The notes under the pieces are model-generated. The model saw nothing but the letters and a program-made list of their open reading frames with translations. It was not told where the DNA came from and ran no database searches. From positions 38,451 through 102,450 of the forward strand of contig JAVTVY010025019.1 of NCBI GenBank assembly GCA_036873755.1: a DNA stretch of 64,000 bases. Direction: 5' to 3'. Of this stretch, positions 2,099 to 60,615 are shown in pieces; position 1 is the stretch's first letter, and each line of letters begins with the position of its first letter. The position numbers were made by a program, and so were the translations under genes. Source of the stretch: Hanleya hanleyi. Its lineage: Eukaryota > Mollusca > Polyplacophora > Lepidopleurida > Hanleyidae.

Positions 2099-4537
2099 AT
2101 ACCCCTCGGCTATAAGTTATTGTCTACATCCAGGAATCATGCATTGTATAATATCATCAGTGTATATTTAGAACTAGATTAACAAAAATTTGATCTAGTA
2201 GGGTTGGCTGTAGTTCAGCTTTTGCCAAGGCCTTGAATGGATTGGGAAAATTTGGCACTGGGGTTCTGGTAGAGCCCGACCGAATTCTTAGCTCTAAATA
2301 TACTCTTCTATATAGCTCATAATCAAATCAAGTAAGACTTAAAGCATAGAATTTGACTTTTTAAAAATAGGTCAAGGCCAGTGATATTCTTCAATACACT
2401 TCAGGTCCAGCCATAAGTGGTATAAATTTGGACAATGTAGATAAAATCTTTCATGGAATATTGTACTCAATAGAATCTGACCTGGATAAAATAGGTCAAG
2501 TATAAAATATGTCGAGGTCAGTCATCTTCAACACACCTCTGGAGCATCACCAGATGTACACATAGTATTAATTTGGAAAGCCTAGCTATATTATATCCTA
2601 ATAAACAGTACATGACCTTGAAAAAGTAGGTCTAGGTCAGTCAACTGGGATAGGCTTCAACAGTTGCATAAGTAATATGAATTTGGAGACCCCAGCTTCA
2701 ATCCTTCAAAAAATATAGCAAATTCTACAATTTGACCTTGATAAAATAGGTCAAGGTCAGTAATCTTCAGTACATCTCTGGACCGTCGCCAGATGTATAC
2801 ATACTATTAATTTGGAAAGCCTAGCTTTATTTCTTCATGTTATATCATAATAAACAGTATATGACCTATAAAAATAGGTCAAGGTCAGTCAACTGGGATT
2901 GGCTTCTAGTCAATCACGAGTTGCATATATAATATGCATTTGGAGACTAGCTTTAATCCTTCAAAAATATAGCAAATACTAGAATTTGACCTTGATAAAA
3001 TAGGTCAAGATCAGTAATCTTCAGTACACCTCTGAACCTTCGCCAGATGTATACATAGTATTAATTTGGAAAGTCTAGCTTTATTATATCATAATAAACA
3101 GTATATGACCTATAAAAAATAGGTCGAGGTCAGTCAACTGGTATAGGCTTCTAGTCAATCACGAGTTGCATATATAATATGCATTTGGATACTCTAGCTT
3201 TAATCCTTCCAAAAATATAGCAAATACTAGAATTTGACGTTGATAAAATAGGTCAAGGTCATTCATTTTTAATAGGCTTCTGACCCTTCACCAGATTCAC
3301 AATGCCTGGCTATAATCCTTCTTGAGATACCGTGTTCACCTGTTTGGTATGCTAGCCCACACATTGTCTCGCCCTAATGTATCTACGGTACTAAAAAAAA
3401 ATTCTATTTAATGATTTCATGAATTTGGGTCACAGTGACATTGACTTTTGAAGTTGATCTCAATTTTGATATGTGACAAATCTTCTCCCCCCTAAAGTAT
3501 CCACTCACAAATAAAATTGTACTTTTCAATGATTTTCTGATTTGTGGACCACAGTGACCTTGACCTCAATTTTGGTATGTGACACATCATACCCCTTAAT
3601 GTATCCAGTAGCAAATATCCACAGCTACAGATAGAAAACTGTCAAGGTTATAGACCAGACAAGAACAGATGGACGAAAATCACAATCATATATGCCAATC
3701 CCTTCAATAATTTCAATCACAGGAAGTGAAATTTCTCACCATAAAATCTGGGGGTGATCAAATTTATCAGAACAAGAGGTTGACATTATAGTCCATAACT
3801 ATGGACAGTCCATAACTATGGACAGTCCATAACTATGGACATTATTTCTTTGTTACTTCAATGATTTTAGAGAATTATCAAATTTATCAGAAGAGCAGAT
3901 TGAATTTGGTCCCTAAAACTGGAGGTATTTTTAGGGGTGACCAAAGTTTGTTTTAGTAGAGGGATTACCATAATTGCCTTTTTGGCAACTTAAAAAAAAA
4001 ACATGAGGCAGCACCTAAAAGATGCAACAACCCCTCAATCAGACAGTTTTAGTCAGTGTATTTTGGTACACAATGAATGGAAAATGCATATGTAAAAGCC
4101 AAATTTTCAGCCGTATCTGAAACAGTTTGGCTTTTATCGCGTTCACATCGCTATATGGACATTTTGTGTGACGTTGCCATGGAAACCACAAAGATCATTG
4201 TAATGTATCCAAATTCAAAATGCTTGTGGTTGACCATCCAACAATCCTGCATGCCAAATCTGAAGTCCCTAGCTGAAACGGTTTATCTTCTATCACATTC
4301 ATAGCGTCATATGGACATTTTGCGTGATGTTGCCATGGAAACCACAAAAATCTCAAATTCTATAGGCTTGTGTATGACCGCCCAACAATCTTGTGCACCA
4401 AATTTGAAGTCTCCAGAGGCAACGGTTTGGCTTCTAGACCGGTCACAAGAATTGTTGACAACCGACGACCGACCAGACGACCGACTGGACGTACATGCCG
4501 ACAACAAAACCCCGCAGCCTAATAGGCGGAGGGGTAA
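2099..4537. mobile_element. Tandem-repeat element a (TACCCCTC termini)
   Basis: The left end TACCCCTCGGC (2099-2109) is matched in inverse by GCGGAGGGGTA (about 4527-4537). Inside are several units of about 200 bp at 2300-3290 carrying GACCTTGATAAAATAGGTCA, then the GTGACCTT-type units at 3330-3660. After an inserted palindromic element come three units of about 170 bp with TTGCCATGGAAACC (4080-4440). A CGACGACCGACCAGACGACC stretch (4461-4490) and a small hairpin GCCTAATAGGC precede the right terminus. No protein is encoded. The superfamily is unknown; the termini are short, so the exact ends are inference. Elements at 25422, 36702, 54624 and 57078 share this order of parts. Confidence 0.5.
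3695..3975. mobile_element. Palindromic MITE, family A copy 1
   Basis: Begins with an AATCCCTTCAATAATTTCAA-like arm and ends with the inverse at GGGATTACC. Both arms include the GGGGTGATCAAATTTATCAG module and its complement. Six other copies are in the window (12775, 25090, 33366, 52430, 54165, 56465). Non-coding. The middle (3789-3840) holds three copies of a GTCCATAACTATGGAC palindrome absent from the other copies. Confidence 0.7.
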
Positions 4538-4845
4538 AAAAACAATCTGAACACTTACAAAGAAAACATATTATTCAGATCTATATACAAAACAATATAT
4601 TCCAATACTGTACAAATATCTGGTCAGCATACATTGACAGAAAATGCATTTTAAAGTTAATCACAACAGGCACAAGCCAAATGTCTTTTTGTAATATGGG
4701 TTTCTGCATATCCATTATCTTTTGACTATTTCCTGTCTGTGCATCATGTGTGTGGTGTCACACATTGATTGTTCTTTCGACCTTCTTTTCACAACATTTC
4801 AATGTTTGATTGAAGCTCTTGTCTTAGCTACAGCACATCGTACCA

Positions 4846-4925
4846 TCAATGTCTTAAATAGTAATCAATTGCCGTGGAGAATATAGCAAATCCTGCAGCA
4901 CCCAGGACACCGGCCTTCAGCCCAG
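4846..4925 (-). CDS. TIMM22: TIMM22 coding exon 4
   Basis: Acceptor TTTCACAG, encodes (A)GLKAGVLGAAGFAIFSTAI then DYYLRH and a TGA stop at 4846-4848: the fourth membrane segment and the C-terminus. Confidence 0.95.
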
Positions 4926-9562: not shown

Positions 9563-9734
9563 GTTGAAAATGCCGGTACAGAAGGGACGTAACTGTACGT
9601 TTCTAGCGTGAATTTATCCCTAAGGTTAAGTTATCTCCCCTTGACCGTGAACGAACTTTCAAAGTGGACCGCTCAGTCAGACATCACAGACACCAGTTCG
9701 AAGTTTTCTTTGCTTCCATGTAAATGTCATCTAA
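9563..9734. promoter_or_regulatory. Probable bidirectional promoter
   Basis: The 172 bp between the TIMM22 start codon (minus strand) and the start codon of a clean first exon (plus strand). It must contain both 5' UTRs and the shared promoter. I see no TATA box facing either way, which would be usual for housekeeping genes arranged head to head. The call is inference from gene layout. Confidence 0.5.
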
Positions 9735-9830
9735 ATGGAAAAGCACACTGAAAACAAATCATTTGATGATCTACTGAATTTTCCAGAAATGTGCAGGAGA
9801 ACCATTGTACATGCAACCATAAAGAAACAG
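9735..9830 (+). CDS. First coding exon of an unidentified divergent gene
   Basis: An open ATG-initiated exon of exactly 32 codons ending in CAG with donor GTAAAC (phase 0). It begins MEKHTENKSFDDLLNF and ends RRTIVHATIKKQ, a soluble, charged N-terminus with no signal peptide. The reading is supported by the start codon, the donor and its head-to-head position 172 bp from TIMM22. I do not recognise the family and could not find the next exon with confidence between 9831 and 13200, so the gene could extend beyond the repeats or the exon could be spurious. Confidence 0.5.
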
Positions 9831-11834: not shown

Positions 11835-12060
11835 CCATGTCAGTGAAGTGACATGTAACATTAAATCAGGTCAGTTACAAGTGACATGTCACATCGAGGT
11901 CAGTAATGTGACAAGTCAGATCCAGCTCAGATCCAAGTGACACATCACATCCAGGTCAGATTAAATGACCCGTCACATCCAGGTCAGATTAAAAGTGACA
12001 TGTCACATCCAGGTCAGCACACACGACATGTATTACACCTCTGTCAGTCAAGTGATATCT
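11835..12060. repeat. 30-bp minisatellite (GTGACATGTCACATCCAGGTCA)
   Basis: Seven or so diverged units built from GTGACATGTCACATC plus CAGGTCAG and spacers of 5-10 bp. GTGACATGTCAC is itself palindromic and the unit carries an AGGTCA half-site. An ORF spanning 11937-12257 is a consequence of the repeat. Confidence 0.75.
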
Positions 12061-12774: not shown

Positions 12775-12990
12775 TCCCATAATAATTCCATCCCCTCTTT
12801 TCAAATTTGATCACCCCCAATTTGTGGACAAAATCCAATCCAATCAGGCAGTCTAATAAATTTTAACAACCTCTTAAAGAAATAATGGATTATCTGCAGA
12901 ACTTGGACCATTTTCTGTTCTAATAAAACTGATCACGCCATCTGTTTATGACGTGGAATTTCATTTCCTGTGATTGAATCATTAGAGGAT
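12775..12990. mobile_element. Palindromic MITE, family A copy 2
   Basis: Starts ATCCCATAATAATTCCATC, ends TGATTGAATCATTAGAGG. Contains TTTGATCACCCCCAATTTGT and CTGTTCTAATAAAACTGATC, the family's internal modules in opposite senses. Non-coding. Confidence 0.7.
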
Positions 12991-13231
12991 CTACAATACC
13001 GAAAAGTTTAGAAATGGTCCCGGTTAAAAACAAATGGAAAACCTAACCTCAGAATTAGGGTGTGAGTTTGTTGATAGTTTTAGACAGGTTCTACAGTGTT
13101 CCTAAGCTGACTAATACTACTTCCGATCCATTCATCATTTTATCAACTTCAGGCCTAGTGAACTTCTCCAGGCACACATCAGTTCCTTGTCCATCCATAT
13201 ATTTTCATGTACAGGGACCGGAAATATGAAG

Positions 13232-15850: not shown

Positions 15851-15892
15851 ATACACAGGAATGGATATATTGTGCAGTCAGTTCAGGAACGG

Positions 15893-17611: not shown

Positions 17612-17814
17612 TTTGGACGAACAGGTGACGTAGAAATTTTCTCTCTACAATTCCCATTACAAACTCCGTTTTCCCGCGGTTCAGCCCCCTTTCCGGTAAA
17701 CACCAATCAGATTATCGTTCACAAACGTCGAAATTCATATTTATGAGGGGATTCCACAAGAATTACATCACTTTTAACCAATCACAGGTGCCGTAAGTAA
17801 GACACCTCGTAAAG

Positions 17815-23320: not shown

Positions 23321-23330
23321 GTTATCAAGT

Positions 23331-36900: not shown

Positions 36901-39900
36901 ATTCCTTGGGAGTATATTGTGGTGAAATTATGAAGCGATCGTGAACTTTGAATTTTGCATCCAATTCACTCTTTTTGGGGCAATTTCATACTTCAGGACC
37001 TATGTGATCTACTTTGGAATGTGCTTTGGACAAATAAATATATCCCATTCATTTAGGTTTGATGAACAAAAGGCCATAACTCTTGAAAATATAACCGAAA
37101 GCAGAGAAACTTCACGCTGCACACCTATGGGGTACTGACCACATATCATGCAAATTCCATAATTGTCCATACAATATTAACTGAGATCCAGCCCGGACAA
37201 GTCCCAATTCACAAAGATTTCAAAAACAAAAGGGCCATAACTCTTGAAATATACGCGAAACGCGGAGAAACTTCACACTGCACAACTACAGGGCACTCAC
37301 CACATATCCTGCAAATTCCATACTTGTCCATACAATATTAACCGAGATCCAGCCTGGACAAGTCCAAATTCACAAAGACTTGATGAACAAAGGGCCATAA
37401 CTCTTGAAAATATATGCGAAACGCGAAGAAACTTCACGCTGCACAACTACAGGGCACTGACCACATACCCTGCAAATTTCATAATTGTCCATACAATATT
37501 AACCAAGATCCAGCCCGGACAAGTCCCAATTCATGGAGATTTCAGGAACAAAGGGCCATAACTCTTGAAAATATAGGCGGAACGGGGAGAAACTTTACGC
37601 TGCACAACTGTGGGGCACTGACCACATGTCATGCAAATTTCATACTTGTTCATACAATATTAACCAAGATCTAGCCCGGACAAGTCCCATTCACAGAGAT
37701 TTCAGAAAAAGGGCCATAACTCTTGAAAATGATACCGGAACTCGGAAAAAACTCTACGCTGCACAACTATGAGCCACTGGTCACATTCCATGCAAGTTTC
37801 AATCCTGTCCATCAATTATTAACCGAGATATCGCGCGGACAAGAAATTCGGACGGACAGACAGACGGACAGACGGACGGACAAAGCGATCGCTATATGCC
37901 CCCCCTCTAGTTAGAGGGGGGGCATAATAATATCAATCTCTACATAGTGTTATCAAAATAGTATCCTATTTGTGTAAGAAATCTTGTTGAATTTAGATTT
38001 TATAATAAAATTAATAAGTTTAATAAATAATTAATTAATAATCAGTCCAATCCAAAGATTTTATAATAAAATTGGACATAATGAAGAAAATAATTTTAGA
38101 AGAGTAGGCCTACATCAGTTCTAACATGATTTTCAATGAATACTCTACCCTCTTCATTATCACCAATTATATACAGATAATATTATTCTATTTTAATGGT
38201 AGTCTATTACATTAGCAATTTACTTGCTGGCATTAATTCAACAATTTGAGGAGAGTTATCTCCCCTGTACCGGTATATTTTAATTGGCCACTAGTGGCGC
38301 CACCATGCTGTCATATGAGACCAACAACAGCAGAAAAACATGCAGGACAGAGTGCGAAAAGAAAGTTGATTTGTTCATGTTAAGCTGGAACTATTGAGGT
38401 TTAAAGAACTGTATTGCAGATGGTGATGAGTGAAGCTACATGTAATGATGGTAAGTAAGTTATAAATATAATTATAATGTTATAACTTAATTAGCAAAAC
38501 AATTCTAATTTCTAGTTAAACTCAGAATGTTGTAATGTGGACCCTCTATGAGCTTTAACTATCAACAAGTTTCTCTTCATATACATGGCATATTAAACAA
38601 TTGATACTCTTCTCAGTAACTACTGCAGCACTTCACCTTATATTTGCAGTCAAAATTAATGACTCATTTAGCCTGGAATTCACAAAGAAATATCCATAAC
38701 TCGATCTGTCTCAAAATTCCTTTCAGATCTACCCAGGTTCATCAAGGCAGCCATTGTTGCATTGTCAGCTGGAAAAGCCCAGGCTTGGGGACCTCATGTG
38801 AAGATTGGCCATGCACCTGGAGGAAATCCCCCGGAGGGTGAGATATATAGGTTGTATCACACCACTGCTTGTGTATTTCCTGTGATCATGTCAAACAGTA
38901 GGATTTAACTTGCTAGGAAGTTTGGTTGGGGTGGGGGAGGGATGTTAGCTCTCAATAAATCAGTTGACATCCTCACTTGTTGTTTTGAAATGTTTATCAT
39001 TTCCTGCTTATATTTCCAGAAGATTTGAGAATATTTCCATACCAAAGTTCTGATGAAATCGCAAAGGAATATTTATTAAAATAAATTGATAACAAAGACA
39101 CTGTTGGCATAACCGATATTTGCTATGATAAAAATGTGACCAGGAAAAGCAGGATAAATTATGATTAGATTTCCTATCACCATAACCATGATAACAGGCT
39201 ATATTTTAATTGTCTATTTATTGCACTATTCTTGACCAAGGCTAAGGATTGCTGCATAATTCAATTGTACATCTGTACCCACATCTTGAAAAATGAGAAC
39301 ATTTCATCATTCATTTCATTTAAAACGTTTTAAACAATTTTTTTTCTCCTCAGATGCAACCAATCGGACATGTTCGAGGCGCACATTTCATCGACTCGGC
39401 GCAGACATGTGATCATGGAAATCATGCAGTGTCTATTGTTGAATTACTTCTTCGCCAAAGAGGAAATAGCATCAGGCAATATTACATGACCAATACAACT
39501 GGATGACGAACATTGTTAAAATCATATTAGTGTACATTCTCAATATTTTTTCCAATTGTGATTGCATTTTCATTTAATGTTGAGCCATAATTCTGGATCC
39601 CACTTCAAAATATTTTGCTTCAAATCCATGAATACTGCTTAAGTATCATAATTTATATTGCATTATAATACTCATGACATGCATTCAAGAATGTATATTT
39701 TACATTAATAACAAATGACTTGAATGACCGTGGTGCTACTGGACCCAAATAATCTTTATTCAGTGAGCGGCACATGTTTGGTTTTTGCAGAGGGCACACC
39801 AATAACAATAACATCACATTTCTATGATATTTCAATGCAAATCATCCTGGTTATCGTCACATTCACTAATATCAGCAATACGCCAGTTGAATGTAGTGTA

Positions 39901-51900: not shown

Positions 51901-54900
51901 TTTTCCATTTGAACTTTTCGTGATCCCATACCTGGAGACAATACTGCTTCATAAGAGTAGAGACAGAGATGTGCCAAACAGAGAAAATATTACCAATTCT
52001 TAGATGAATAAAATCAATAAATGAAAAGTTTTGGGTAGGGGCCTTTTTGGTAGGTAGGTACCGTAGGGTTACCCAAAACAAACGATATCTTAATTTTGGC
52101 CCTGTGCTTGAATTTATAAAATTCAATGCAAAATAATTAAATCTGATCTTTTTTCCGATGGGAATAGTATGTAATCAACATGGGTTCGCCTGTGGTATAA
52201 AGCATGTCAAAAATTAGACCATATTTCGGTTGGGCTTGGTGAAACTCACTTTGGACTAGATAGCAAAATTCTTTGTGGCTGGACTAAGCTCTCCTCATCT
52301 AAAATACAAAGAGATTACAAGTCAGTGGTGTAATAATCATATTTTATTTATCTGGTGAACATATAGAACAAGACATCATGTCGTACCAATACATTATGGA
52401 CTCCTGGAATATTTTACTCCCACTAGTCTCAGTAATAATTCTATCAAACAAAGATGACAAAATGGTTCAAGATCATGCATACATTTTTTTTACTATTTCG
52501 ATGATTTTAGAGGGTGGACAAATTTATTAGAACAGTCAAATGAAATTTGTCTCTGAAATTGGAACCGATTGAATTTTGATGGAACGAATGAATTATTTGA
52601 GAGATTACCTTACCGCCTACAAGCTTCTTCTGATTTTTGAATTTCTTCTTTAATGTACAACTGTGATGGAGGTAACAGTGGTGATATGGAGAGAGAAGAC
52701 TCTCCGAGCACTCATGGGATAACTATCAACTTGCCTCGCCGAATTTGCAGGGAAAGTTAATTTCTGAGACTTGTCCTGCTGATTTTAGGATAGGCTTCTG
52801 TTTTTTGACCACATGCATGTGTGATGTAAGTTGGTGTACCTAGGCAAATTCATTCTTCAGATATGATGTTAATGAGAAAACAAAGACGGATGAACGTACA
52901 TACATACATGTACATGTAACATGATGAGAATACCTCAAACACAATTTTGGCTGTAATTCATGACCTGATGTGTGTCTAGTGTAAGTTCAGTAAGCCTACT
53001 GACCTTATCATACTTGAAATATGGTGGTAATAAGCAGAGATGAACAGACAAATCTGACCCCGTGACCCACAAAAATAGGTCAATATCACCAATTTTTGAT
53101 AGGCTTCTGCTTTAAGATCATATACATATGTGTGAAGTAAGATTGGTGCTCCTAGGCATAGTCATTCTTGAGATATGGTGGTACAATCAATTCATGATTA
53201 CATGTTGTAATTGACACAGTTTGACCTGGTGACCTGGGAAAATATGGGCCAATCTCGCTGATTTTCAATAGGCTTCTGCTATGTGACCATATACATGTGT
53301 GATGTAAGTTTGGTAATCCTAGACATAGTCGTTCTTGAGATACGAGAACAATCTAATCGGAGACGGACTGATGTACGAACATACATGATGATGACAATAC
53401 CCTTCAGGGCAAAATTGCCCAAGGCCAGGGGTAAACCAGGCTGGTTAATTTTTGATGCAAGAGATTAATTTTATCCAACCTTAACTAGCTGTAATTGCTC
53501 ACAGTCATGCATGTCTATCTTTAATAAATTTGATTCACCACAATGGCAAAAGGTGGAACCGACTGAGTGGATGCAATGATAACATGAAATTACAAGATAA
53601 GATCACTTCTGGTGACCAATTTATGTGGTTATTTTCTCAAAATGATTGCCGTACTAGGCCATAGTCATTAATTATTGAAACCATTAATTTACTCTAATTA
53701 TGTATGGAATCCAGATCCCTCATGTTATCGTCATTATTACAAAATAGAATAGAATTTATTTGCCAAATTAGATGCCCATACTGAAGCAAACAATCATACA
53801 TGGAATCAAGTTATCCCCCCCCCCCCCTCTCCCCCCAAATCGTTACCCCCTTGTCAGTCGTGGGGAGATGATGAGGCCTGTCGGCGATGGCTCAATTTCC
53901 ATCTCTTAACGAACAGCCTCACCCCCACAGTTACCAAAACCCCATCCAGGAGTACAACGTCGACAGTTGAGTGGGATATGGGCAATTCCATTCCCCTTCC
54001 CGTCGACCAGAACAACCGGATGGGAGGAGAAACAGAGTCAATCGTACAATAATTGACACAATTTAATACAATTACAAACTCCTAACAATTACATGCCATA
54101 TGAGAATCTAATATGAACATGGCATATACTGTAATATATCATCATTCATATATATATGGATGTAATCACTGTAATAATTTAATTCCCCTATCAAAATTTA
54201 AACACCCTCAATTTTGGGGACAAATTCAATTGGCTGCTCTAATAAATTTGATCACCCTCTAAAATAATTGAAATATTAAAATGAACCGAGAAAAAAAAAA
54301 GGATTATCTGCACGATTTTGAACTATTTTGTCAACTTCCTGTTGTAATAAATCTGTTTCGATTTGTATCACTTATCACACTGGTCACTGGAGAGAGGTAC
54401 ATGCATGTAGACTGGTATAAATTTTGACCCCTGCCAGATCAGGCAACCTATTGTCTCTCTCACATTGCGAGGGTACAGGCTTTTTTGGCAATATATCGGC
54501 AAATATATATGGCAAACTCAACATCATTGTGCTTTGAAAATAACACACATGGTACTGGAGATTTTCTTTGATCCTGAATTTCCTTGATATTTCAGGATTA
54601 AAATCTACCTTCGAGGTCTACATCCCCTGCCAGCAGCACCAGTTAGATTGGATTGCATCCACCATAACTGGTGCTGCTGCTGCGGGGAAAGTGGACCGGG
54701 GGTCAATTTTGAAAATGGAGATCTGTCTGACGAGCCATACATCCCACAAGTCGATCAGTGCAATAGTTCTCGAGTTATTGTCCATACAAAATCTAACTAC
54801 TGAAAATCCAAGACAGCTGGAAGCTTTCTTGTATTACACAGGTAACTGAAAAGCAATCTCAACCATCCTCTCACCGATGTCAAGACACGCTCCAAGTTTG

Positions 54901-57900
54901 AAGTTGATCAGTTCAACAGTTCAACAGTTCTCGAGTTATTGGTCGGAAAAGACATGTGTAACGATCCATCTGCTGACAATGCAAGAAATCTGATGGCAGC
55001 CATCTTGAATCGCACAGGTAACGGAAAAGCAATCTCAACCGTCCTCTCGCCGATGTCGACACTCTTCAAGTTTGAAATTGAGCAGTTCAATTATTCTCGA
55101 TTTATTGCACTTAAAATTCAAGATGGCTGATAGTGGCCAACTTGGATTATGCAGGTAAATTAGCAATCCCAACAGTCCTCTCACCGATGTCAAGCCACTC
55201 TCCGAGTTTGAAGTCGATCAGTTCAATCTTTCTCGAATTAATGTCTGGACAACATCAAACTGCTAAAATTTAAGATGGATGATGGCCATCTTTAAGTACA
55301 CAGGTAAATGAAACGCATGCCAACCGTCCTCTCACTGATGTCAAGAGACTCCCCAAATTTAAGTCAATTGGTTCAATATTTCTTGAGTAATGTGTCAAGA
55401 GCTTGGAACTGCTGACAATCCAAGATGGTTGATGATGGCCATCTTGGATTACACAGGTAACTAAAAAGCAATCCCAACCATCCTCTCACCGATGTCAAGA
55501 CACTCTCCAAGTTTGAAGTCGATCGGTTGTATAGTTCTCGAGTTATTGGTTGGACAAGAAATGTGTAAAGATCCAACTGCTGAAATCCAAGATGGCTGAT
55601 GGGGGCCATCTTGGATTATGCAGGTAATCGAAAAGCAATCCTCTAACCGACGTCAAGAAACCCTCCAAGTTTGAAGTCAATCGGTTCTATAGTTCTCGAG
55701 TTATTGGTCGGACAAGAAATGTGTAAAGATACAACTGCTGAAATCCAAGATGGCTGATGACGGCCGTCTTGTATTATGCAGGTAACAGAAAAGCAATCCC
55801 AACCATCCTCTCACCGATGTCAAGACACTCTGGAAGTTGGAAGTCGATTGGTTCATTGATTCTCGAGTTATTGGTTGGACAATAAATGTGTAACGGAATA
55901 ACGGGTGTGTAACGGAATAACGGAATTACGGGTATTTCTAAGTCTCCACCCATTTATGTGGCGGGGGAACAAAAATGCACAAATTACATTTAGATACTGA
56001 GTGGAATTTCAGTGCTCTGAGAAAATATTGTTCCGATGTATTGCCTGTTCCCCTCCAATGCGAGACAGACAGTAGCTACTGGTCAGTGAAGCATGGCAAT
56101 ATAGTGGGAATCAGACCCATACATTGTGACGAGGGTATCTCATATCTGCCGAGATTGGGTTTACTTTGGCAATGGAATATTATCTGTGTACTTCTAGTGC
56201 ATTATCACAGACAGTACAACTGATAAGCTGCCGATGCATGTATTGTACATGGCAAAAATAAAAGCCGACATCTATCATTCTGTCTAGTGAATCTACAGAA
56301 ACAGATGAGCTTCTGACAGGATCCCCATTTGGGTGATGTCTGGTAAATGTCAGATTTAATAACTCCTCGTCCAATTAATATAATTATCATAACTTTCTGC
56401 TGTGACGATTAGAAGAAAATCCAGCTCTGCAATGTACAATATTATATTGTACAAACTGTGTGCTTATGGTAATCCCTCTAATAATTCAATCACAGGAAGT
56501 GAAATTTCCCACCATAAAATCTGGGGGTGATCAAATTTATTAGAACAGGAAATTAACAAAATGGTTTGAAATCCTGCATATAATTTATTATTTCTTCATT
56601 ATTTCAAAGATTTCAGAATTTTGACGGGGGGATTGAATTATTAGAGTGATTATCATATAAATGTGAATAATATTAATCATGTACGCTAATTACAGGCCTG
56701 CAAGTGCCTCACAGTAAAAATATAGGAGGAAATTTGCGAAAAAATAGGAGAAATATAGGAATTTTCTGAATAAAATATAGGAAAATATTATATAGGAAAT
56801 AAAGGAGTGCAAGACAGGTCTGTACTACATTGTATGTTCCAAAGTTTGTAGTTTTCTGGTGTTTAATCAAATTACTTTCACTGAATGGTGTCATAGTGGT
56901 CTTTTTCGAGGTGATCTGTTCTGTTATTTGATTCAGCATAGAGATTTAAATGTTTTCATATTTGCCGAGCGAAGCGAGGCGAAAAAAAATTGCTGAACTG
57001 AATTTCCTCATGTCAGTTTGACTCATTACAGAGCATTGATGAAAGTTTTCATGAGAAAAATCGACCATAGAGGTCCATGTCCCCCGCTAGCAGCACCAGT
57101 TATGGTGGATTACATCCACCATAACTGGCGCTGCTGCTGCGGGGGCCATGGACCTCTATGGTCGATTTTTTGGGGTCGATGATATCTCATATCATTGATA
57201 AGAGTATGATTTGAAAATGGAGATATCGCTGATGAGCTTAACATAATCTAATACAGCAGATGGCACCCATATTGGATTATGCACATCCATAAAACATGAT
57301 ACATGACTGTCCTCTCACTAAGGTCAAGGGACTCCCCAAGTTTGAAGTAGATCAGTTGAATCGTACTCCAGCTATTGTCCGGACAAGATCAAACTGCTTA
57401 AAATCCAATGAAATCCAGTATGGCCGATGGTGGCCATATTGGATTAAGCACGTCCTTGAAAAACAATCCTAATCCTCCTCTCAACAATGTCAAGGTACTC
57501 CCCAGGTATGAAGTAGATCGGGTGAATCGTTCTCGAGTTATTGTCCAGACAAGATTCAACTGCTTACAATCCAATATGGCTGACGGCGGCCATATTAGAT
57601 TACGCACATTGCTGAAAAACAATCCCAACCGTCCTCTCACAAATGTCAAGGCACACCCCAAATTTGAAGTTGATCGATTAAATCGTTCACGAGTTATTGT
57701 CCGGACAAGAAAATCTAAGATCCAACTGCTTATAATCCAATATGGCTGACGGTGGCTATATTGGATTATGCACATCGCTGAAAAAAATCCAAACCGTCCT
57801 CTCACCGATGTCAAGGCACTCCCCAAGTTTGAAGTAGATCAGTTGAATCGTACTCCAGTTATTGTCCGGACAAGATCAAACTGCTTAAAATCCAATGAAA

Positions 57901-60615
57901 TCCAGTATGGCTGATGGTGGCCATATTGGATCAAGCACGTCCTTGAAAAACAATCCTAATCCTCCTCTCAACAATGTCAAGGCACTCCCCACATATGAAG
58001 TAGATCGGTTGAATCGTTCTCGAGTTGTTGTCCGGACAAGATCCAACTGCTTATAATCCAATATAGCTGACGGCGGCCATATTAGATTACGCACATTGCT
58101 GAAAAACAATCACAACCGTCCTCTCACCAATGTCAAGGCATACCCCAAGTTTGAAGTTGAACGGTTAAATCATTCACGAGTTATTGTCCGGACAAGAAAA
58201 TCTAAGATCGAACAGCTTATAATCCAAAATGGCTGACGGCGGCCATATTTGATTACGCACATTGCTGAAAAACAATCCCAACCGTCCTCTCACCAATGTC
58301 AAGGCACACCCCAAGTTTGAAGTTGATCGGTTAAATCGTTCACGAGTTCTTGTCCGGACAAGAAAATCTAAGATCGAACAGCTTATAATCCAAAATGGCT
58401 GACGGCGGCCATATTTGATTACGCACATGGCTGAAAAACAATCCCAACCGTCCTCTCACCAATGTCAAGGCACACCCCAAGTTTGAAGTTGATCAGTTAA
58501 ATCGTTCACGAGTTATTGTCCGGACAAGAAAATCTAAGATCGTACTGCTTATAATCCAAAATGGCTGACGGCGGCCATATTGGATTACGCACATTGCTGA
58601 AAAACAATCCCATCCGTCCTCTCGCCAATGTCAAGGCACACCCCAAGTTTGAAGTTGATCGGTTAAATCGTTCATGAGTTATTGTCCGGACAAGAAAATC
58701 TTACAGAATTACGGAATTACGGAATCACGGAATTACGGAATCACGGACACCGGTGTTTCTAAGTCCCCCCCCTACTAAGTAGCGGGGGACAAAAAGTCAA
58801 AATATAGGAAATATAGGAGGTTTTGAGTCAAATATAGGAAAATATAGGAGGCAATTGAAGGCCTGTAATTAATGGGTTTTGTTCTCTTTCACTGTAAAAA
58901 AGACATAATCGATGATGAAGTCAGTCTTAAAGACTGAACAGACTTATGAAGTTCTACATGCACAAAGAGCATGTCAATAAAAAATCGTATATTTTGACCA
59001 AGTTTTTTTTAAAGTGAACGTAAAGGCTGCGACAACACACGCACTGTGTGGAAGAACTATATTACATGTATTAAAAGTATCATTTGGCAGCAACAAATAT
59101 TTTTTGTGATTTTTTCCCTTCCAAAAAAAAAATTCCAAACACGGGAATTATTGACTGATGCAACGAGCGACTGGAGTCGGCCATATCAGTTTATTGATTA
59201 GCCTTGCGCCAATGAAAACGCTTGTACGGAGCACGTGATATTTTCCTGTGACGTAGTATCACTTTGTTTTGGCATCGCTGTAGCACGAATTGTAATTGCG
59301 GTGGTGGAGAGCTCGGCTGTTTCAAGCGTGTTTTGATTGTGTTGCGTGTCTCCAGCAAGTGTTTACTGACCTGAAACGTTCGATGAACTACTCACTACTT
59401 TCGTCGACATCGGAGCGTTTTGGTTCAAACTGGTAACCCTGTAAACCTTCATTTGTCTCTTCGTCAGAACTTGAAGTCAGGCTAGCCTCCTCGTGCGTCG
59501 CTATGTTTACATGCTTTCTGCGCTTTCTAACTCCACGAAGTAAAGAGCTCCGAGGTGATACAACGTCACTGCTCTGAGTGAGATAGCCAGCATGGCGGCA
59601 GCCGGGGAACAATAATACAACGGAGATAATTTCGTTCGTACTCGGTGCAAAAAAATCCCCAAAAATATTTGTTGCTGCTATTTCAGTATTTCAATGTAGC
59701 TCTTTCCCACAGAGTGCATGTTGCCTCAGCCTTTACGCTCACTTTAAATAATTATTTTTAGTGTTTAGCAAAAAAATTTACATGGTGAACATTCAATTCT
59801 TTGCTTATATATTTACTGCATGTACATGTATTACTGATTGAAATTTGCCACAATAACGTTGAAAAATAATTGAAAGATACTTAGCAAAAAAGAAAAGATG
59901 TGATACAACCTGTATCACATCATGGGTGTGTCACATTGTTTATGGTCGCTGTGATGTGCACACACAGGTATGAAAGCATACCAAAGTGGGGTAAGAAACT
60001 ATGCTAAGCAACTATTACTTGTTCAATACTGAAGCGGTTGATATTTCGCTTGATGGGTTTACCGCATACTCATCTCTCCCTTTGGGACTGAAGAGCCGTA
60101 TGCATGGGAGATGGGCAGGAACTATTAAACACAAACCAGATGATGTCAAACTTCTTCTTGGTAACCAAGCGCATGTGCGAAGTATAAATAGACTTTAATT
60201 AAAGGCTCTTGACCTGTAGAATGTTTCAGTGGCCGGACGGTTAGAGTGGTAAAGGTCGTAAGTTCGAGACCACACAGGGACAGACTGAAGACGCAGCCTG
60301 TTAGCTGGAAATGGAGTGCTACCATATGTGAGAATATCGATGTGTGAATATTTCGATAATATTCACAGTTTTGAGGAAGAAACGAAGTCCATTATTTATT
60401 CCCAATTTATGAATGCTCATATTGTCTATGGATAAGTGTCGGTATTGTGGGATATATATCGAGTGCCCTTAAAAGATTGGCTGTAAAAATGGTCAAAATG
60501 AAGCTTTATGTTTTTCAGAACAACATGACTTGTGTATTATGTTAAATTAGTTAATGCATGGATTGTAACAATACTTACTTGGAACTGTTCTGAGGACAAA
60601 CCGTCTACTGCAGTC
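24919..60615 (-). CDS. ROGDI: ROGDI homolog, 10 exons recognised (N-terminal part incomplete)
   Basis: Minus-strand gene assembled from exons 60579-60615, 52614-52660, 52250-52298, 51430-51487, 34576-34662, 32888-32983, 31330-31428, 29970-30101, 29373-29456 and 24919-24966. They total 737 nt, about 245 codons; human ROGDI is about 287 aa. Every intron has GT/AG ends and phases agree across all junctions from 52614 downstream. Diagnostic stretches include GAGSVKCVVTLLGDTLCEA, PWKLQQ|IQDAGNH and VECTVQWLNEVLILFTVALQ followed by CQQLKDK. These match the order of the leucine-rich Rogdi family protein. The family is known as a leucine-zipper-like protein linked to the V-ATPase/Rabconnectin (RAVE-like) complex at synaptic and endolysosomal membranes; that role is from general knowledge. 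Missing: the exon joining the 60579 and 52614 exons (expected to start WLL-like) and the initiator exon. The gene spans over 35 kb, nearly all intron made of transposons. Confidence 0.9.
25090..25260. mobile_element. Palindromic MITE, family A copy 3 (shortened)
   Basis: CATCCCTCTAATAATTCAATC arm at 25095, then the internal ACAAAATGGTTCAAAATCAT and GATTTTAGAGGGTGATTGAA parts. The right arm is incomplete. Confidence 0.65.
25422..27575. mobile_element. Tandem-repeat element b (ATACGCCC termini) rich in TGACCTTGA
   Basis: Left ATACGCCC (25422-25429, preceded by GGGCTTCAAT as in element a) is mirrored by GGGCGTAT (about 27568-27575). From about 25950 to 27480 it holds ten or more diverged units of 100-130 bp. 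Typical pieces are GGGTCACAGTGACCTTGACC, TTTGACCTTGACC, ATTTTGGTACGTGACACAT and ATTTCCTGATTTT. Then comes GACGGACGGACAGACGG (about 27519-27535) and a terminal hairpin CCGCCTTTTGGCGG. No protein encoded. Repeated TGACCT and TGACCTTGA are nuclear-receptor half-sites in both spacing-1 direct and extended forms. Confidence 0.6.
27605..28430. repeat. GGACAGATCTATGGACAATGGA tandem array
   Basis: About fourteen units of variable length (34-65 bp) on the core AATGTGGACAGATCTATGGA plus CAATGGATGGGTC. Interrupted at 27856-28045 by an inserted interspersed element. Minus- and plus-strand ORFs inside it are repeat artefacts. Confidence 0.85.
27856..28045 (+). mobile_element. Interspersed element (GTTTAACGTC family) inserted in an array
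   Basis: (GTGA)n head, then ATAGGGTTTAACGTCGCTTTC and CAGCTATATCACGACGGGG, a (GGGAA)n tract and a tail ending near TATCATGCTGTAT. The GATCTATGG array resumes on both sides, so this inserted into an existing array. Confidence 0.7.
28838..29411. repeat. 40-bp minisatellite derived from a ROGDI exon-intron junction
   Basis: About fourteen units of exactly 40 bp, consensus (plus strand) ACACATTTGTAAAGCTACTC and ACTTTATCTTTGAGCTGCTG. On the minus strand each unit reads CAGCAGCTCAAAGATAAAGTGAGTAG, the end of the ROGDI exon at 29373-29456 and its splice donor. A variant with CATCTGT and CTCGC recurs 200 bp apart (near 29035 and 29235), so a five-unit block was itself duplicated. Confidence 0.95.
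29373..29456 (-). CDS. ROGDI: ROGDI exon (84 bp) with minisatellite-duplicated donor
   Basis: Acceptor GTTTTCACAG, 28 codons VECTVQWLNEVLILFTVALQ then MCQQLKDK, donor GTGAGTAG. The last 28 coding bases plus the donor are the unit that is repeated about 14 times downstream (28838-29411). Confidence 0.95.
29505..29830. mobile_element. MITE, family B copy 2 (5' truncated)
   Basis: Shares GGACGTCAATACTTGTAACG, TTCAGTCTTTGGGAGGCTGG and CAGAATTCAGCTGGGCTTGG with other copies and ends AAACTTTACATTTCACCT. The left inverted end is missing. Lies between two ROGDI exons. Confidence 0.75.
29970..30101 (-). CDS. ROGDI: ROGDI exon (132 bp)
   Basis: Acceptor TCTATTCAG, donor GTAAGC, 44 codons beginning QSFNPSLPKDVALSFY and including HKLILALYNLNLNQQQK, the family's LPSDLLVNVYINLNKL-type beta/helix segment. 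Confidence 0.92.
30600..31070. repeat. 41-bp minisatellite in a ROGDI intron
   Basis: About ten units of 41-42 bp: ATTCAGCGGTAACTGTTAGA plus TAATTCAATCATTCTATCAA. Two subtypes are arranged in blocks: ATTCAGCGGTAACTG (30700-30860) and ATTGAGAAGTAAACTG (30870-30990). Confidence 0.9.
31330..31428 (-). CDS. ROGDI: ROGDI exon (99 bp)
   Basis: Acceptor GATTTTCAG, donor GTGAGT, 33 codons: LLDEIMSSLNRGRTSLALPK then RKSIDDLVSNRNM. Leucine-rich helix followed by a basic linker. Confidence 0.92.
31435..32880. other. ROGDI intron without recognised repeat
   Basis: Contains a G-tract near 31539-31549 and a T/G-rich patch. At 32818-32865 a CTGTTGGCGGTGTATT unit occurs three times. No exon with matching phase was seen. 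Confidence 0.4.
32888..32983 (-). CDS. ROGDI: ROGDI exon (96 bp)
   Basis: Acceptor TCCTCTGTAG, donor GTAAGA, 32 codons beginning IQDAGNHLCHAM, corresponding to IQDARNHVSQAI of vertebrate ROGDI. Confidence 0.92.
33366..34115. mobile_element. Palindromic MITE, family A copy 4, split by a family B insertion
   Basis: The left part (33366-33465) ends CATTCTAATAAACTTGATCG plus GCCTCTTAAAATC. The right part (34008-34115) starts GGATAAATAATGGATTATCT and ends TTCTAATAAATTTGGTCACC plus. The order matches uninterrupted copies at 12775 and 54165, so the family B element at 33466-34007 landed inside it. Confidence 0.7.
33466..34007. mobile_element. MITE, family B copy 3, carrying a nested interspersed element
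   Basis: Ends TTAAAGGTGGAATGCAAAGG and CCTTGGCATTTCACCTTTAA, near-perfect inverses. Internal CGGACGTCAATACTTGTAAC and GGTCTGACGTGACTTC. At 33818-33885 it is interrupted by a GTTTAACGTC-family fragment between GGTACCTTCATTTTAAAGG and AGCTTCTAGCAGACAAAC. Confidence 0.8.
34171..34439. mobile_element. piggyBac-like MITE
   Basis: TTAA at 34171-34174 and 34436-34439 flank termini CCCTTTGTTTA (34175) and TAAACAAAGGG (ends 34435). A second inner inverse pair is AAGCGGAAATCC / GGATTTGTCCGC. 261 bp, non-coding. TTAA duplication and CCCTTTG ends are typical of piggyBac-type MITEs. The termini differ from those of the full piggyBac at 15210, so it is a different family. Confidence 0.8.
34576..34662 (-). 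CDS. ROGDI: ROGDI exon (87 bp)
   Basis: Acceptor GTGATTTCAG, donor GTAATG, 29 codons beginning DINFKHKQGNNH and ending PDIPWKLQQ. A 261-bp piggyBac-like MITE lies 137 bp downstream in the intron. Confidence 0.92.
35572..35807 (+). repeat. 5' LTR
   Basis: 236 bp, begins TGTTACCTCGAAATAAATCG and ends ACTACTACA. Contains CGCTTATATAGAATTCGGG, a likely TATA region near 35700. Differs from the 3' LTR only at two places near its end. Confidence 0.92.
35810..35827 (+). promoter_or_regulatory. Probable tRNA primer-binding site
   Basis: TGGCGTCAGATT starts two bases after the 5' LTR. TGG at this place and TGRYGTCAGA-type sequences are usual for primer-binding sites of Ty3-like elements. Complementarity is short, so this is tentative. 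Confidence 0.45.
35977..36180. repeat. Left CTTGTAAGATC subterminal array
   Basis: Overlapping copies of ATCTTGTAAGATCTTGTAGG and their inverses, changing toward TGTCCTACAAGATC inward. Strongly self-complementary. Confidence 0.85.
36702..37926. mobile_element. Tandem-repeat element c (TATGCCCCCC termini)
   Basis: Left TATGCCCCCCTT (36703) and inverse right end GGGGGGGCATA (ends 37926). Five or six units of about 175 bp, each with AGGGCCATAACTCTTGAAAA, GGAGAAACTTCACGCTGCAC and CAAATTCCATACTTGTCCAT plus ACAATATTAACCGAGATCC. Then GACGGACAGACAGACGGACA (about 37850-37880) and a terminal hairpin CCCCCCTCTAGTTAGAGGGGG. Two or three ORFs run through the units but the translations simply repeat and are not genes. 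Confidence 0.7.
38420..40149 (+). pseudogene. Possible BEN-domain gene inside the inverted-repeat element
   Basis: Four splice-bounded open segments on the plus strand. Segment 1: 38420-38450, ATG immediately after a TTGCAG, donor GTAAGT. Segment 2: 38727-38837, fully open, LPRFIKAAIVALSAGKAQAW then GPHVKIGHAPGGNPPE, donor GTGAGA. Segment 3: from 39354 after CTCCTCAG. Segment 4: from 40074 after TTTTTTACCAG to a stop at 40147. In one frame segment 3 gives RRHVIMEIMQCLLLNYFFAK then EEIASGN, and segment 4 gives KVILDAMKSKLN. Their pattern recalls the C-terminal helices of a BEN domain (a DNA-binding fold). The phases of segments 2 to 3 do not agree for that frame, so the gene is frameshifted or misread. 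AATAAA follows at 40230. Confidence 0.35.
38727..38837 (+). CDS. Well-supported exon of the possible BEN-like gene
   Basis: 111 bp, strong acceptor (CCTTTCAG) and donor (GTGAGA), 36 complete codons plus split codons that join in phase with the ATG exon at 38420-38450. GPHVKIGHAPGGNPPE looks like a structured domain segment. The family assignment is uncertain. Confidence 0.5.
40230..40235 (+). terminator. AATAAA polyadenylation signal candidate
   Basis: AATAAA 80 bp past the stop of the last open segment of the possible BEN-like gene; a second AATAAAATGTATG copy occurs at about 40331. Confidence 0.35.
40475..40880. repeat. Right CTTGTAAGATC subterminal array
   Basis: About fifteen short units alternating GATCCTGTAGGACAGTCTTG and TAGGATCTTGTAAGATCCTG, turning to the inverse sense near 40800. 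It is the counterpart of the left array. Confidence 0.85.
41150..41565. repeat. Diverged tandem duplication in the LTR element leader
   Basis: Two copies of a segment of about 250 bp: CTGGTATATAGCCGGCTGAG at about 41180 and CTGGTATTTAGCCAGTTGAA at about 41438. Each is followed by TATATACAGTA/GCATTATT and CTGTGATARRCGCG and then TGTTATTA. Non-coding leader of the retroelement. Confidence 0.7.
43196..44632 (+). pseudogene. Gag, first part, of the gag-only LTR element
   Basis: 478-codon ORF; the Met at residue 16 (MADLGPIDVS) is an equally good start. Residues 22-75 (TEEALQKLKGVGSSRSARVV, then NFKHFMQATQFSAGHIADL) look like a helix-hairpin-helix DNA-binding motif of the ComEA type. Residues 105-204 form a coiled coil with GQVETKV repeated three times (156-177). 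A low-complexity acidic linker follows, with an Arg/Ser patch near 365. From about 390 the retrotransposon Gag core begins, TLVFSGTRGDWVPFRVKFKL. A one-base shift near 44592 sends this frame to an early stop; the core continues in the next frame from 44595. Known role: particle assembly and RNA packaging. Broken by the shift. Confidence 0.8.
44595..44825 (+). pseudogene. Gag core, continuation in a shifted frame
   Basis: Continues the Ty3-like Gag core with LQAEVQGPEDTLEEFAFRCA, ARDGYPNAPEKI and VAVEHFLRGCREIQAVRFAM. It stops at a hAT-like insertion at 44826. Across that insertion the codons are in phase again after one TATAA copy, so the insertion did not shift the frame; only the base shift near 44592 and the insertion break the gene. 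Confidence 0.8.
44826..45922. mobile_element. hAT-like non-autonomous element inserted in gag
   Basis: 1,097 bp. Termini CAGGGTTCGCACAG and the inverse of CAAGGTTCGCACAG, flanked by TATAA on both sides (44821-44825 and 45923-45927). Subterminal TTCCAGGAC repeats occur at both ends (four or more each). A 5-bp duplication is shorter than the usual 8 bp of hAT elements, though short-duplication hAT groups are known. It carries a BED-type zinc-finger remnant on the minus strand and no transposase core. Confidence 0.82.
45360..45569 (-). pseudogene. BED-type zinc-finger remnant of a hAT transposase
   Basis: Minus-strand ORF of 69 codons with CRLCQNTFDVGNMGESSVKS followed by HAKGAKH. The CxxC ... 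H x4-5 H spacing and the MGxSxxKSHAKGxKH signature are typical of BED fingers at the N-terminus of hAT transposases. No catalytic domain follows, consistent with an internally deleted element. An ATG is available at 45569 but the true start in the parent element is probably further upstream. Confidence 0.65.
45928..46618 (+). CDS. Gag C-terminus (CCHC zinc knuckle) and aspartic protease of the LTR element
   Basis: Continues from the gag core after the hAT insertion. An Arg-rich stretch RSPRRRSSRPFRPPR precedes a CCHC knuckle CYSCCKPGHISRFC (46085-46126). A retropepsin-like domain follows with VVDTAAQVTVMS (active-site DTA, not the commoner DTG, at 46319-46330) and the closing LLLGFDFLSAYG near residue 210. 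The stop codon is 46616-46618, and no pol follows. Known roles: RNA binding by the knuckle, maturation of Gag by the protease. Confidence 0.88.
46619..48475 (+). other. Non-coding 3' region of the LTR element
   Basis: 1.86 kb between the protease stop and the 3' LTR, GT-rich and without an ORF of interest. At 47890-48120 three units of about 85 bp repeat TTATTGCGGCCATGTAGCTG plus GTAGGCTGGCCTGC. The absence of pol motifs here is the basis for calling the element gag-only. Confidence 0.7.
48476..48711 (+). repeat. 3' LTR
   Basis: Matches the 5' LTR over 236 bp with two substitutions (GATAG for GCTAG, CACATT for CACAAT). No purine tract abuts it directly; the nearest is GAAAACGGGGAGGGGTG about 40 bp upstream. 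Confidence 0.92.
49208..49497. mobile_element. Foldback MITE near the right arm of the outer element
   Basis: Left GGGCCGCGTGTATTCCAACA... and right the inverse of GCCGCGTATGTTCAAACCTC. Arms share CAACACGTG, CACTGGCAAAACGTTTC, TATGTAGT and AACCAAT-AAAA in order. About 290 bp, non-coding. Its AAACGTTTC box resembles those in the outer element's arms. Confidence 0.6.
49760..51425. other. ROGDI intron, little recognised
   Basis: Contains an inverse pair AGTAACTCCGAAAATGGAAG (49820) / CTTCCATTTTTGGAGTTACT (49863). The remainder shows no repeat or phase-compatible exon. A minus-strand ORF at 49722-49970 with two hydrophobic stretches spans this inverse pair and the arm of the outer element and is not called. 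Confidence 0.4.
51430..51487 (-). CDS. ROGDI: ROGDI exon (58 bp)
   Basis: Acceptor CATTGCAG, donor GTAAGT, encodes GAGSVKCVVTLLGDTLCEA, aligning to the VKGVLTLQGDAL region of vertebrate ROGDI. The intron that follows is 16.8 kb and holds the transposon nest. Confidence 0.9.
51740..51806. mobile_element. Family B MITE end fragment
   Basis: AAAAACCTTTGCATTTCACCTT at 51780 is the family's right terminus; the rest is absent. Followed by an A/T-rich (TTTTA)n tract at 51868-51903. Confidence 0.5.
52250..52298 (-). CDS. ROGDI: ROGDI exon (49 bp)
   Basis: Acceptor GTATTTTAG, donor GTGAGT, encodes EESLVQPQRILLSSP with split codons at both ends that agree with its neighbours. Confidence 0.82.
52430..52612. 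mobile_element. Palindromic MITE, family A copy 5, abutting a ROGDI splice donor
   Basis: Contains AAAATGGTTCAAGATCATGC, GATGATTTTAGAGGGTGGAC and AATTTATTAGAACAG, ending AATTATTTGAGAGATTACC. The end lies at the donor GTAAGG of the exon 52614-52660, leaving only the first 5 intron bases. Confidence 0.65.
52614..52660 (-). CDS. ROGDI: ROGDI exon (47 bp)
   Basis: Acceptor TCCATCACAG, donor GTAAGG, encodes (x)CTLKKKFKNQKKLVG plus one base. The phase joins the next exon to give LVGDEES. A family-A palindromic MITE starts 5 bp beyond the donor. Confidence 0.75.
52790..53420. repeat. Three-unit tandem block with hairpin end (possible element d)
   Basis: Three units of about 200 bp: GATAGGCTTCTGCTTTAAGA-like, ATACATGTGTGATGTAAGTT and GGTAATCCTAGGCATAGTC plus ATTCTTGAGATATG. 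Followed by CGGAGACGGACTGATG and a small hairpin TACCCTTCAGGGCA. It resembles elements a-c in order, but I could not define a left terminus. Confidence 0.5.
53421..54160. other. ROGDI intron with poly-C tract
   Basis: Poly-C 53814-53827. Otherwise no repeat family or exon recognised. Confidence 0.4.
54165..54352. mobile_element. Palindromic MITE, family A copy 6
   Basis: AATAATTTAATTCCCCTATC, CCCTCAATTTTGGGGACAAA and TCTAATAAATTTGATCACCC, then GGATTATCTGCACGATTTTG. The right arm is incomplete, ending near TGTTGTAATAAATC. Confidence 0.7.
54624..55971. mobile_element. Tandem-repeat element e (CCCCTGCCA termini)
   Basis: Left CATCCCCTGCCAGCAGCACC begins a large hairpin whose other side is AACTGGTGCTGCTGCTGCGG (54665-54686). 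The right end TGGCGGGGGAACAAAAA is the inverse of CCCCCGCCA. Between are about seven units of roughly 155 bp with CAACCATCCTCTCACCGATG, AAGTTTGAAGTCGATCGGTT and ATCCAAGATGGCTGATGG. The ACGGAATAACGGGTG minisatellite follows (55895-55938). Non-coding. Confidence 0.65.
56465..56658. mobile_element. Palindromic MITE, family A copy 7 (best preserved)
   Basis: Starts GGTAATCCCTCTAATAATTC and ends GAATTATTAGAGTGATTATC, a nearly exact inverse. The inner modules CCACCATAAAATCTGGGGGT and GATCAAATTTATTAGAACAG define the family. Confidence 0.8.
56694..58865. mobile_element. hAT-like non-autonomous element enclosing element f
   Basis: Termini CAGGCCTGCAAGTGCCTC and the inverse of CAGGCCTTCAATTGCCTC, flanked by TAATTA on both sides (56688-56693 and 58866-58871). 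Subterminal ATATAGGA repeats at both ends (56718-56800 and 58800-58850). The 6-bp duplication is shorter than the classic 8. No coding region; nearly all its length is the inserted tandem-repeat element. Confidence 0.78.
57078..58791. mobile_element. Tandem-repeat element f (TGTCCCCCGCTA termini)
   Basis: Left TGTCCCCCGCTAGCAGCACC opens a hairpin whose far side is AACTGGCGCTGCTGCTGCGG (57122-57143); the right end TAGCGGGGGACA is the inverse terminus. About nine units of roughly 150-165 bp contain TCCTCTCACCAATGTCAAGG, AAGTTTGAAGTTGATCGGTT, CGAGTTATTGTCCGGACAAG and AAAATGGCTGACGGCGGCCA. Next comes a GAATTACGGAATCACG minisatellite (58693-58745) and a hairpin CCCCCCTACTAAGTAGCGGGG. Units resemble those of element e. 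ORFs through it are artefacts. Confidence 0.78.
59009..59747 (-). mobile_element. TTAA-flanked element, possibly Kolobok-like
   Basis: TTAA at 59009-59012 and 59744-59747 flank diverged inverse termini AGTGAACGTAAAGGCTGCG and the inverse of AGTGAGCGTAAAGGCTGAG, similar over about 45 bp. Carries a short minus-strand ORF and no transposase. TTAA targets are used by piggyBac and Kolobok elements; the choice of Kolobok is inference. Confidence 0.6.
59388..59612 (-). CDS. Short ORF with P2RX7-C-like start
   Basis: 74 codons, ending SSSDEETNEGLQGYQFEPKR then SDVDESSE. GYQFEP followed by acidic serines recalls the beginning of the P2RX7 C-terminal-like domain that is often found in invertebrate transposon-associated proteins. 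The cysteine-rich part of that domain is absent, so this is at best a first exon or a remnant. The element's termini surround it. Not confidently identified. Confidence 0.3.
   Translation of the reverse strand: MFPGCRHAGYLTQSSDVVSPRSSLLRGVRKRRKHVNIATHEEASLTSSSDEETNEGLQGYQFEPKRSDVDESSE
60230..60300 (+). ncRNA. tRNA-derived SINE head
   Basis: TGGCCGGACGGTTAGAGTGG resembles a tRNA 5' half with box A (TTAGAGTGG), and GTAAGTTCGAGACCACACAG contains box B (GTTCGAGACC). The spacing fits a polymerase III promoter of a tRNA-derived SINE such as those common in molluscs. The acceptor stem does not close, so it is not a functional tRNA. Confidence 0.5.
60579..60615 (-). CDS. ROGDI: ROGDI exon (N-terminal, 37 bp)
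   Basis: Acceptor AATTATAG, donor GTAAGT, encodes TAVDGLSSEQFQ. SSEQFQ aligns with the family's LEEEF segment, just before the WLL motif that should open the next exon. The short size makes this the least certain ROGDI exon; it leaves phase 0. Confidence 0.55.

What the first reader, a model, noticed from the sequence alone, without database searches (positions are those of the whole stretch)
2099..58791. A shared architecture across five or six unrelated-looking tandem-repeat elements
Elements at 2099-4537, 25422-27575, 36702-37926, 54624-55971 and 57078-58791 (perhaps 52790-53420) follow the same plan. A short C-rich inverted terminus (TACCCCTCGGC, ATACGCCC, TATGCCCCCC, CATCCCCTGCC, TGTCCCCCGC) comes first, then a tandem array whose unit (100-200 bp) differs between elements, then a short ACGGA/GACGGAC minisatellite. 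A terminal hairpin, in which the terminus pairs with its own inverse, closes each one. Elements a and b also share GGGCTTCAATA just outside the left terminus. Elements e and f open with the same GCAGCACCAGTTATGG-type hairpin. None encodes protein. The same parts with different arrays suggest one mobilising machinery that picks up or generates arrays, or a hairpin-dependent amplification process.
Basis: partly seen in the sequence, partly recalled or inferred. Interest (0 to 1): 0.85.

Follow-up and report, generated by a model that had tools for sequence, protein, structure and literature searches.

The report
Non-autonomous Helentrons carrying satellite-like arrays
The repeated blueprint is real but known: these look like several families of small protein-less passenger jumping elements (HINEs, relatives of Helentrons) that spread short satellite-like arrays through an animal genome, and one of the described elements is really three elements lying in and beside one another.

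Summary
The shared plan exists, but it is the published plan of HINE/pearl elements (non-autonomous Helentrons), read backwards. Genome copies place edges at 25390-27577 (b), 36668-37927 (c), about 54601-55970 (d) and 57057-58791 (e). GGGCTTCAATA belongs to the 3' palindrome, inside A and b. Element a is not one element: a 5'-truncated family-A copy (2078 to ~3339) lies in b-like array, beside a fragment with another 5' end (4536); 39 of 39 other primary matches stay within 2335-3339. f keeps only a 5' end.

Empty sites without target-site duplication were found for A and e. The genome holds many Helitron_like_N ORFs; three sampled groups end in an endonuclease-like domain, below cut-off. No autonomous element with these exact ends was found. 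A b-type 5' terminus also fronts an unrelated 169-bp array, in a HINE (h) lodged in an autonomous Helentron group. d and e have a head-to-head duplicated 3' terminus. New families of a known kind.

The parts
1872..2077 (-). b-like tandem array, left of the family-A copy
   Evidence: matches the array of element b
2078..3339 (-). family-A HINE, 3' end present (3' palindrome and subTIR at about 2083-2105), its own 5' end missing
   Evidence: 39 of 39 other primary matches lie in 2335-3339, with separate pieces back to 2065-2078; complete copies elsewhere have a different 5' end
3345..3692 (-). b-like tandem array, right of the family-A copy
   Evidence: matches the array of element b
3699..4536 (-). 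fragment g, another HINE: 5' subTIR and inverted repeat at 4536, GTCG-type microsatellite, ~150-bp units
   Evidence: sequence; 5'-end scan; not searched in the genome
25390..27577 (-). element b, HINE
   Evidence: edges from 39 other rows
25395..25409 (-).
   Evidence: sequence; folding not exceptional (13 of 200 shuffles)
25414..25421 (-). 3' subTIR of b
27550..27576 (-). 5' subTIR plus inverted repeat of b
36668..37927 (-). element c, HINE; copies 97-99% identical
36681..36697 (-). 3' palindrome of c
   Evidence: 3 of 200 shuffles fold as well
37851..37882 (-). microsatellite of c
37895..37926 (-). 5' subTIR plus inverted repeat of c
52790..53433 (-). f: 5' end and ~160-bp units; no 3' end seen
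   Evidence: not searched in the genome
54601..55970 (-). element d, older HINE related to e
57057..58791 (-). element e, HINE
   Evidence: 30 loci
57056..57170 (-). head-to-head duplicated 3' terminus of e, one 115-nt hairpin
   Evidence: two oppositely oriented copies in 30 of 30 e loci
58701..58747 (-). microsatellite of e

Best explanation
b, c, d and e are complete or near-complete non-autonomous Helentrons (HINEs, the pearl type of bivalves), d and e being related; family A, g and f are partial members, and element a is a nest of three elements, not a unit. An autonomous Helentron's Rep/helicase presumably nicks at the T|T 5' end, drives rolling-circle transfer through the array, stops at the 3' subTIR and palindrome, and inserts into TT without target-site duplication. 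Shown here: edges of families A, b, c and e, T|T junctions and empty sites (A, e), absence of a fixed target-site duplication (A, e), amplification of the families, and Rep ORFs in the same genome. Inferred: rolling-circle transfer, mobilisation in trans, and slippage or unequal exchange as the cause of array-length differences.
For: Same order of parts in b, c and e as in the HINE descriptions (PMC7492417 section 7; PMC4067079 passages). Edges coincide with these parts in copies. e: T before the 5' end in 28 of 28, T-run of 4-9 after GGTCGA in 27 of 28. A: T before the 5' end in 18 of 20, T after the 3' end in 15 of 20. Empty sites L002, L007, L021, L037, L048. Element lengths vary between like ends (e: 1543-2201 bp in 28 copies). 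150 scored Helitron_like_N hits pass the cut-off, 27 of them in frames of 2400 codons or more; three groups have a C-terminal endonuclease match, below cut-off. One Helentron group's 3' end has the same plan.
Against: Published subTIRs are 11-15 bp; exact matches here are 8-12 bp, and d has none beyond 5 bp. The 3' palindromes of A and b do not fold better than chance. Empty sites were not tested for b, c and d. No autonomous element with these exact ends was found. The endonuclease matches lie below the curated cut-off.
Confidence: 0.93

Rival explanations
1. They are MITEs of cut-and-paste transposons that happen to contain arrays: a transposase excises them by short terminal inverted repeats and makes target-site duplications.
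For: Short inverted repeats near both ends; a DDE transposase ORF (PF13843, E 8e-71) lies in the window at 15893-17611.
Against: Flank repeats are 0-4 bp with no fixed length in 28 e and 20 A copies; joined flanks match empty sites without loss or duplication (L002, L007, L021, L037, L048); the inverted repeats are subterminal at the 3' side.
Confidence: 0.03
2. Element a (2078-4536) is a real composite HINE with a family-A 3' end and a g 5' end, mobilised as one unit, and so an example of array acquisition by transfer between compatible ends of neighbouring elements.
For: The two ends share TACCCCTC; composite transposition between neighbouring elements is discussed in PMC4067079 (passages).
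Against: None of the other 39 primary matches goes beyond 2335-3339; complete A copies have their own 5' end; b-like array lies on both sides of A, as it does next to other A copies (L033, L037, L051). But only 40 of 16,069 candidates were scored, and 3340-4570 was not searched by itself.
Confidence: 0.04
3. Arrays arise by a hairpin-dependent amplification at fixed sites, without transposition of the whole unit.
For: Hairpins at both ends, strongest in e.
Against: Whole units with the same edges occur at many unrelated flanks, with empty sites.
Confidence: 0.02

Closest known systems
Cg_HINE elements of the oyster Crassostrea gigas (PMC7492417; abstract and sections 7-9 and part 1 of section 10 seen)
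   Same: 5' subTIR, inverted repeat and short GTCY-like microsatellite on one side, array of 140-180-bp units, 3' subTIR and palindrome, T-rich target, no target-site duplication, array orientation fixed, related flanks with unrelated arrays in one group.
   Different: Sequences were not compared here. Some units are shorter (b ~112 bp). d and e have a head-to-head duplicated 3' terminus, not described in the sections that I saw.
HINE / DINE-1 and autonomous Helentrons (PMC4067079; passages seen)
   Same: subTIRs, inverted repeat, 3' stem-loop, central repeats, TT target; autonomous members with Rep, helicase and endonuclease.
   Different: There partners with over 84-98% identical sequence were found; here no partner of a-e was found.
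Pearl elements of bivalves (from PMC7492417 section 10 and recall; original paper not seen)
   Same: Short arrays of ~160-bp repeats between unlike flanks, several families in one genome.
   Different: Not compared by sequence; host of the window not identified.

Membership tests
HINE (non-autonomous Helentron) | subterminal inverted repeats (subTIRs, usually 11-15 bp) at both ends | tested here: inconclusive
   exact 12 bp in e, 10 in c, 9 in b, 8 in the mixed ends of a; only 5 in d and f; mismatched longer pairings were not scored
HINE (non-autonomous Helentron) | inverted repeat a few bases inside the 5' subTIR, then a short microsatellite | tested here: met
   b, c, e and g; family A copies; d by eye only
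HINE (non-autonomous Helentron) | 3' palindrome beyond the 3' subTIR | tested here: met
   present in A, b, c, e and inside the copy edges; by energy exceptional in c and in the duplicated termini of d and e only
HINE (non-autonomous Helentron) | insertion at TT without target-site duplication | tested here: met
   families A and e; not tested for b, c, d
HINE (non-autonomous Helentron) | central tandem repeats, no protein | tested here: met
   arrays; no ORF of 150 aa or more in any element
HINE (non-autonomous Helentron) | autonomous Helentron partner sharing the ends | tested here: inconclusive
canonical Helitron | 5' TC, 3' CTRR, insertion between A and T | tested here: not met
   5' TG or TA, 3' T-run, T|T junctions in A and e
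MITE of a cut-and-paste transposon | target-site duplication of fixed length | tested here: not met
   flank repeats 0-4 bp, no fixed length, in 28 e and 20 A copies

The most novel reading that the evidence does not exclude
Families d and e carry a double-faced terminator: the whole 3' terminus (subTIR, palindrome, T-run) is duplicated head-to-head into a ~115-nt hairpin that is kept by selection; and HINE termini gain new arrays by nesting of HINEs in one another and in autonomous Helentrons (A in b-like arrays, h in Helentron group iv), followed by transfer between compatible ends. That would answer how one set of ends comes to carry unrelated arrays.
Probability: 0.15. Interest if true: 0.55.

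Novelty: new member of a known kind. Interest (0 to 1): 0.3.

Why it matters
It places a puzzling set of parallel features in one recognised class and gives edges for several new families, one of which (c) has copies 97-99% identical and so moved recently. It adds two leads on questions left open in the oyster paper, how such elements get their arrays and who moves them: the same 5' terminus in front of unrelated arrays, and a HINE lodged upstream of the ORF in an amplified autonomous Helentron group. The mirrored 3' terminus of d and e is a testable variant of the Helentron stop signal.

Tried and rejected
Common ancestry of all arrays: a two-block motif taken from the d/e unit was looked for in the other units; shuffles reaching the score were f 14, g 17, c 71, the iv array 77, A 248, b 459 of 500 each. 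Not established. Pairwise BLAST of arrays linked only d with e and, over 38 bp, A with f.

An array native to an autonomous Helentron: so read at first from L072 (notes), rejected: the stretch has HINE ends of its own and 17 of 40 rows look free-standing. The start of free-standing copies (758 or later) does not reach the 5' end at 710, which I put down to the damaged inverted repeat in L072; this was not checked in their letters.

Helentron groups i, ii and iii as partners: no end like those of a-e was recognised in about 3 kb beyond the ORF (three copies of ii, two of iii, one of i). Group iv: its 5' end was not reached. Rfam and ARAGORN found nothing in the window. g and f were not searched in the genome. 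The host species was not determined; 'bivalve-like' rests on recall and on the literature.

Full report
What is there. The window is G000:C20376:38451-102450 of a 2.48-Gb assembly in 52,793 contigs. The named elements contain tandem arrays and short minisatellites. A scan for such a 5' end gives 7 hits in the window and 3 in all over 30 shuffles; 4 of the 7 are the 5' ends of b, c, e and of the right part of a, all on the minus strand, and d and f are missed.

Boundaries from genome copies. Only the best 40 candidates are scored per search, so counts are lower bounds. Family e: 30 loci were fetched, 28 have both ends; the base before the 5' end is T in 28 of 28, and 4-9 T follow GGTCGA in 27 of 28. 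Family b: 31 of 39 other top rows start at 25388-25390, 7 of 39 run to 27577-27581, and 14 of 39 stop at one internal point. Family c: 29 of 39 start at 36666-36669 and 33 of 39 end at 37927-37933, at 97-99% identity, with 5977 first-look candidates. Family d is older: long matches are mostly 73-83% identical, pieces starting at 54600-54603 occur on 14 contigs, several matches end between 55966 and 55986, and one contig (C47463, 82%) matches beyond both edges, as a duplicated locus would. Some loci are not independent: L017 and L022, and L045 and L046, have the same flanks.

Element a. All 39 other primary matches lie within 2335-3339, with separate pieces back to 2065-2078. Where complete, family A has its own 5' end, TACCCCTCGGGCAAATTTTGCCCGAAGGGTA, and is 1376-1481 bp long in 19 of 20 measured copies, with one of 2436. 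In the window this 5' end is missing. The sequence on both sides of the A copy (1872-2077 and about 3345-3692) is b-like array, and 3699-4536 belongs to a third element with another 5' end. A also lies in b-type sequence elsewhere: the joined flanks of L037 match window 27439-27529, inside element b, at 95.6% without gap across the junction, and L033 and L051 have b-like flanks.

Insertion. Joined 50-bp flanks give empty sites for e: L002 (90-97% to six places), L007 (up to 100%) and L021 (up to 91%); and for A: L037 (95.6%), L048 (88%) and L035 (90%). Other joins align with gaps, at lower identity or over part only (L024, L027, L033, L045/L046, L054, L057, L059); the hit of L012 is a neighbouring element's end, not an empty site. 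Direct repeats between flanks are 0-4 bp with no fixed length in 28 e and 20 A copies. This is insertion at T|T without target-site duplication, as reported for HINEs (PMC4067079 passages; PMC7492417 section 9).

Machinery. PF14214 (Helitron_like_N) has 440 candidates in the genome; 150 were scored, all pass the cut-off, and 27 lie in open frames of 2400 codons or more. Grouping of these hits into i-iv is mine, by profile coverage. C-terminal pieces of groups i, iii and iv match PF14529 at E 4e-4 to 6e-4, below the curated cut-off; an upstream piece of group ii matches OTU (2.5e-11) and Herpes_teg_N (2.2e-26). Two copies of group iv (L067, L070) are 99.3% identical over 2632 columns and part at the same base after GGTGGGCGCCAAGATCCTTCAGGATCTCTCGTTT, again subTIR-like sequence, palindrome and T-run. 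Its sequence is not that of a-e, and its 5' end was not reached. So the class of machinery is present and the specific partner is not identified; the oyster authors report the same gap (PMC7492417 section 10).

Same terminus, different array. Upstream of the ORF in group iv lies a 170-bp, 7.9-copy array, preceded in a second copy by GTTTATACGCCCGTCAATTTTGACGGGACGTTATTATG. The window's best match to this end is the b 5' end (score 37 in 12,788 tiles; next independent place 28). In a genome search with this stretch, 18 of 40 scored rows run on to the ORF start, 17 of 40 begin at 758 or later and stop at 2382-2393, and 5 fit neither (counted by hand). At 2383 the sequence reads CGGGCGTATTTTGGGTTCAATTGAAATCTTGTT, a HINE-like 3' end. 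On 10 contigs, the query's own included, the match lies 3.4-3.9 kb from a listed Rep hit in the same orientation. Hence I read h as a HINE with b-type ends and an unrelated array, inserted in an autonomous Helentron and amplified with it; an insertion is inferred, no empty Helentron was fetched. It agrees with the published pattern of related flanks with unrelated arrays (PMC7492417 section 8).

Mirrored 3' terminus. In e the 3' terminus is repeated head-to-head (arms of 32 and 22 nt) and can fold as one 115-nt hairpin at -63.8 kcal/mol (z -19.6); in d a decayed form remains (z -6.65). The oppositely oriented second copy is in 30 of 30 e loci. Whether it works is not shown.

Literature. Paper searches are. 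Of PMC7492417 I saw the abstract, sections 7, 8, 9 and part 1 of section 10; of PMC4067079, PMC8268682 and PMC11136912 only passages; the rest only as listings. In what I saw, no autonomous partner of bivalve HINEs is named and the mirrored terminus is not described; this is no proof that they are not in print. Pearl elements are described from PMC7492417 and recall.

Noticed in passing
window 15893-17611 (-): 572-aa ORF with a DDE_Tnp_1_7 domain (PF13843, E 8e-71), a piggyBac-type transposase by recall.
   Followed up: no
window 45911-46618 (+): 235-aa ORF matching retroviral-type aspartyl proteases (PF13650, E 2.5e-11).
   Followed up: no
window 28832-29409 and 40482-40800: Other tandem arrays (40 bp x 14.5 copies; 56 bp x 5.4 copies), not seen to have HINE ends.
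   Followed up: no
window 3691-3785 and 56465-56558: A further dispersed repeat, 88% identical between the two places, with weaker inverted matches at 34036-34105 and 12916-12978.
   Followed up: no
L012 (3' flank of the e copy): An e-family copy directly abuts an A-type 5' end (TACCCCTCGGCC...GGCCTAGGGGTA), two Helentron-type elements head to tail at one T-run.
   Followed up: partly
L002, L018, L027: Sequences near three e-family copies belong to one longer tandem repeat family that also supplies empty sites; possibly a preference for satellite DNA.
   Followed up: no
L061 (G000:C22035): The ORF upstream of a Helitron_like_N domain carries OTU and Herpes_teg_N Pfam matches.
   Followed up: no
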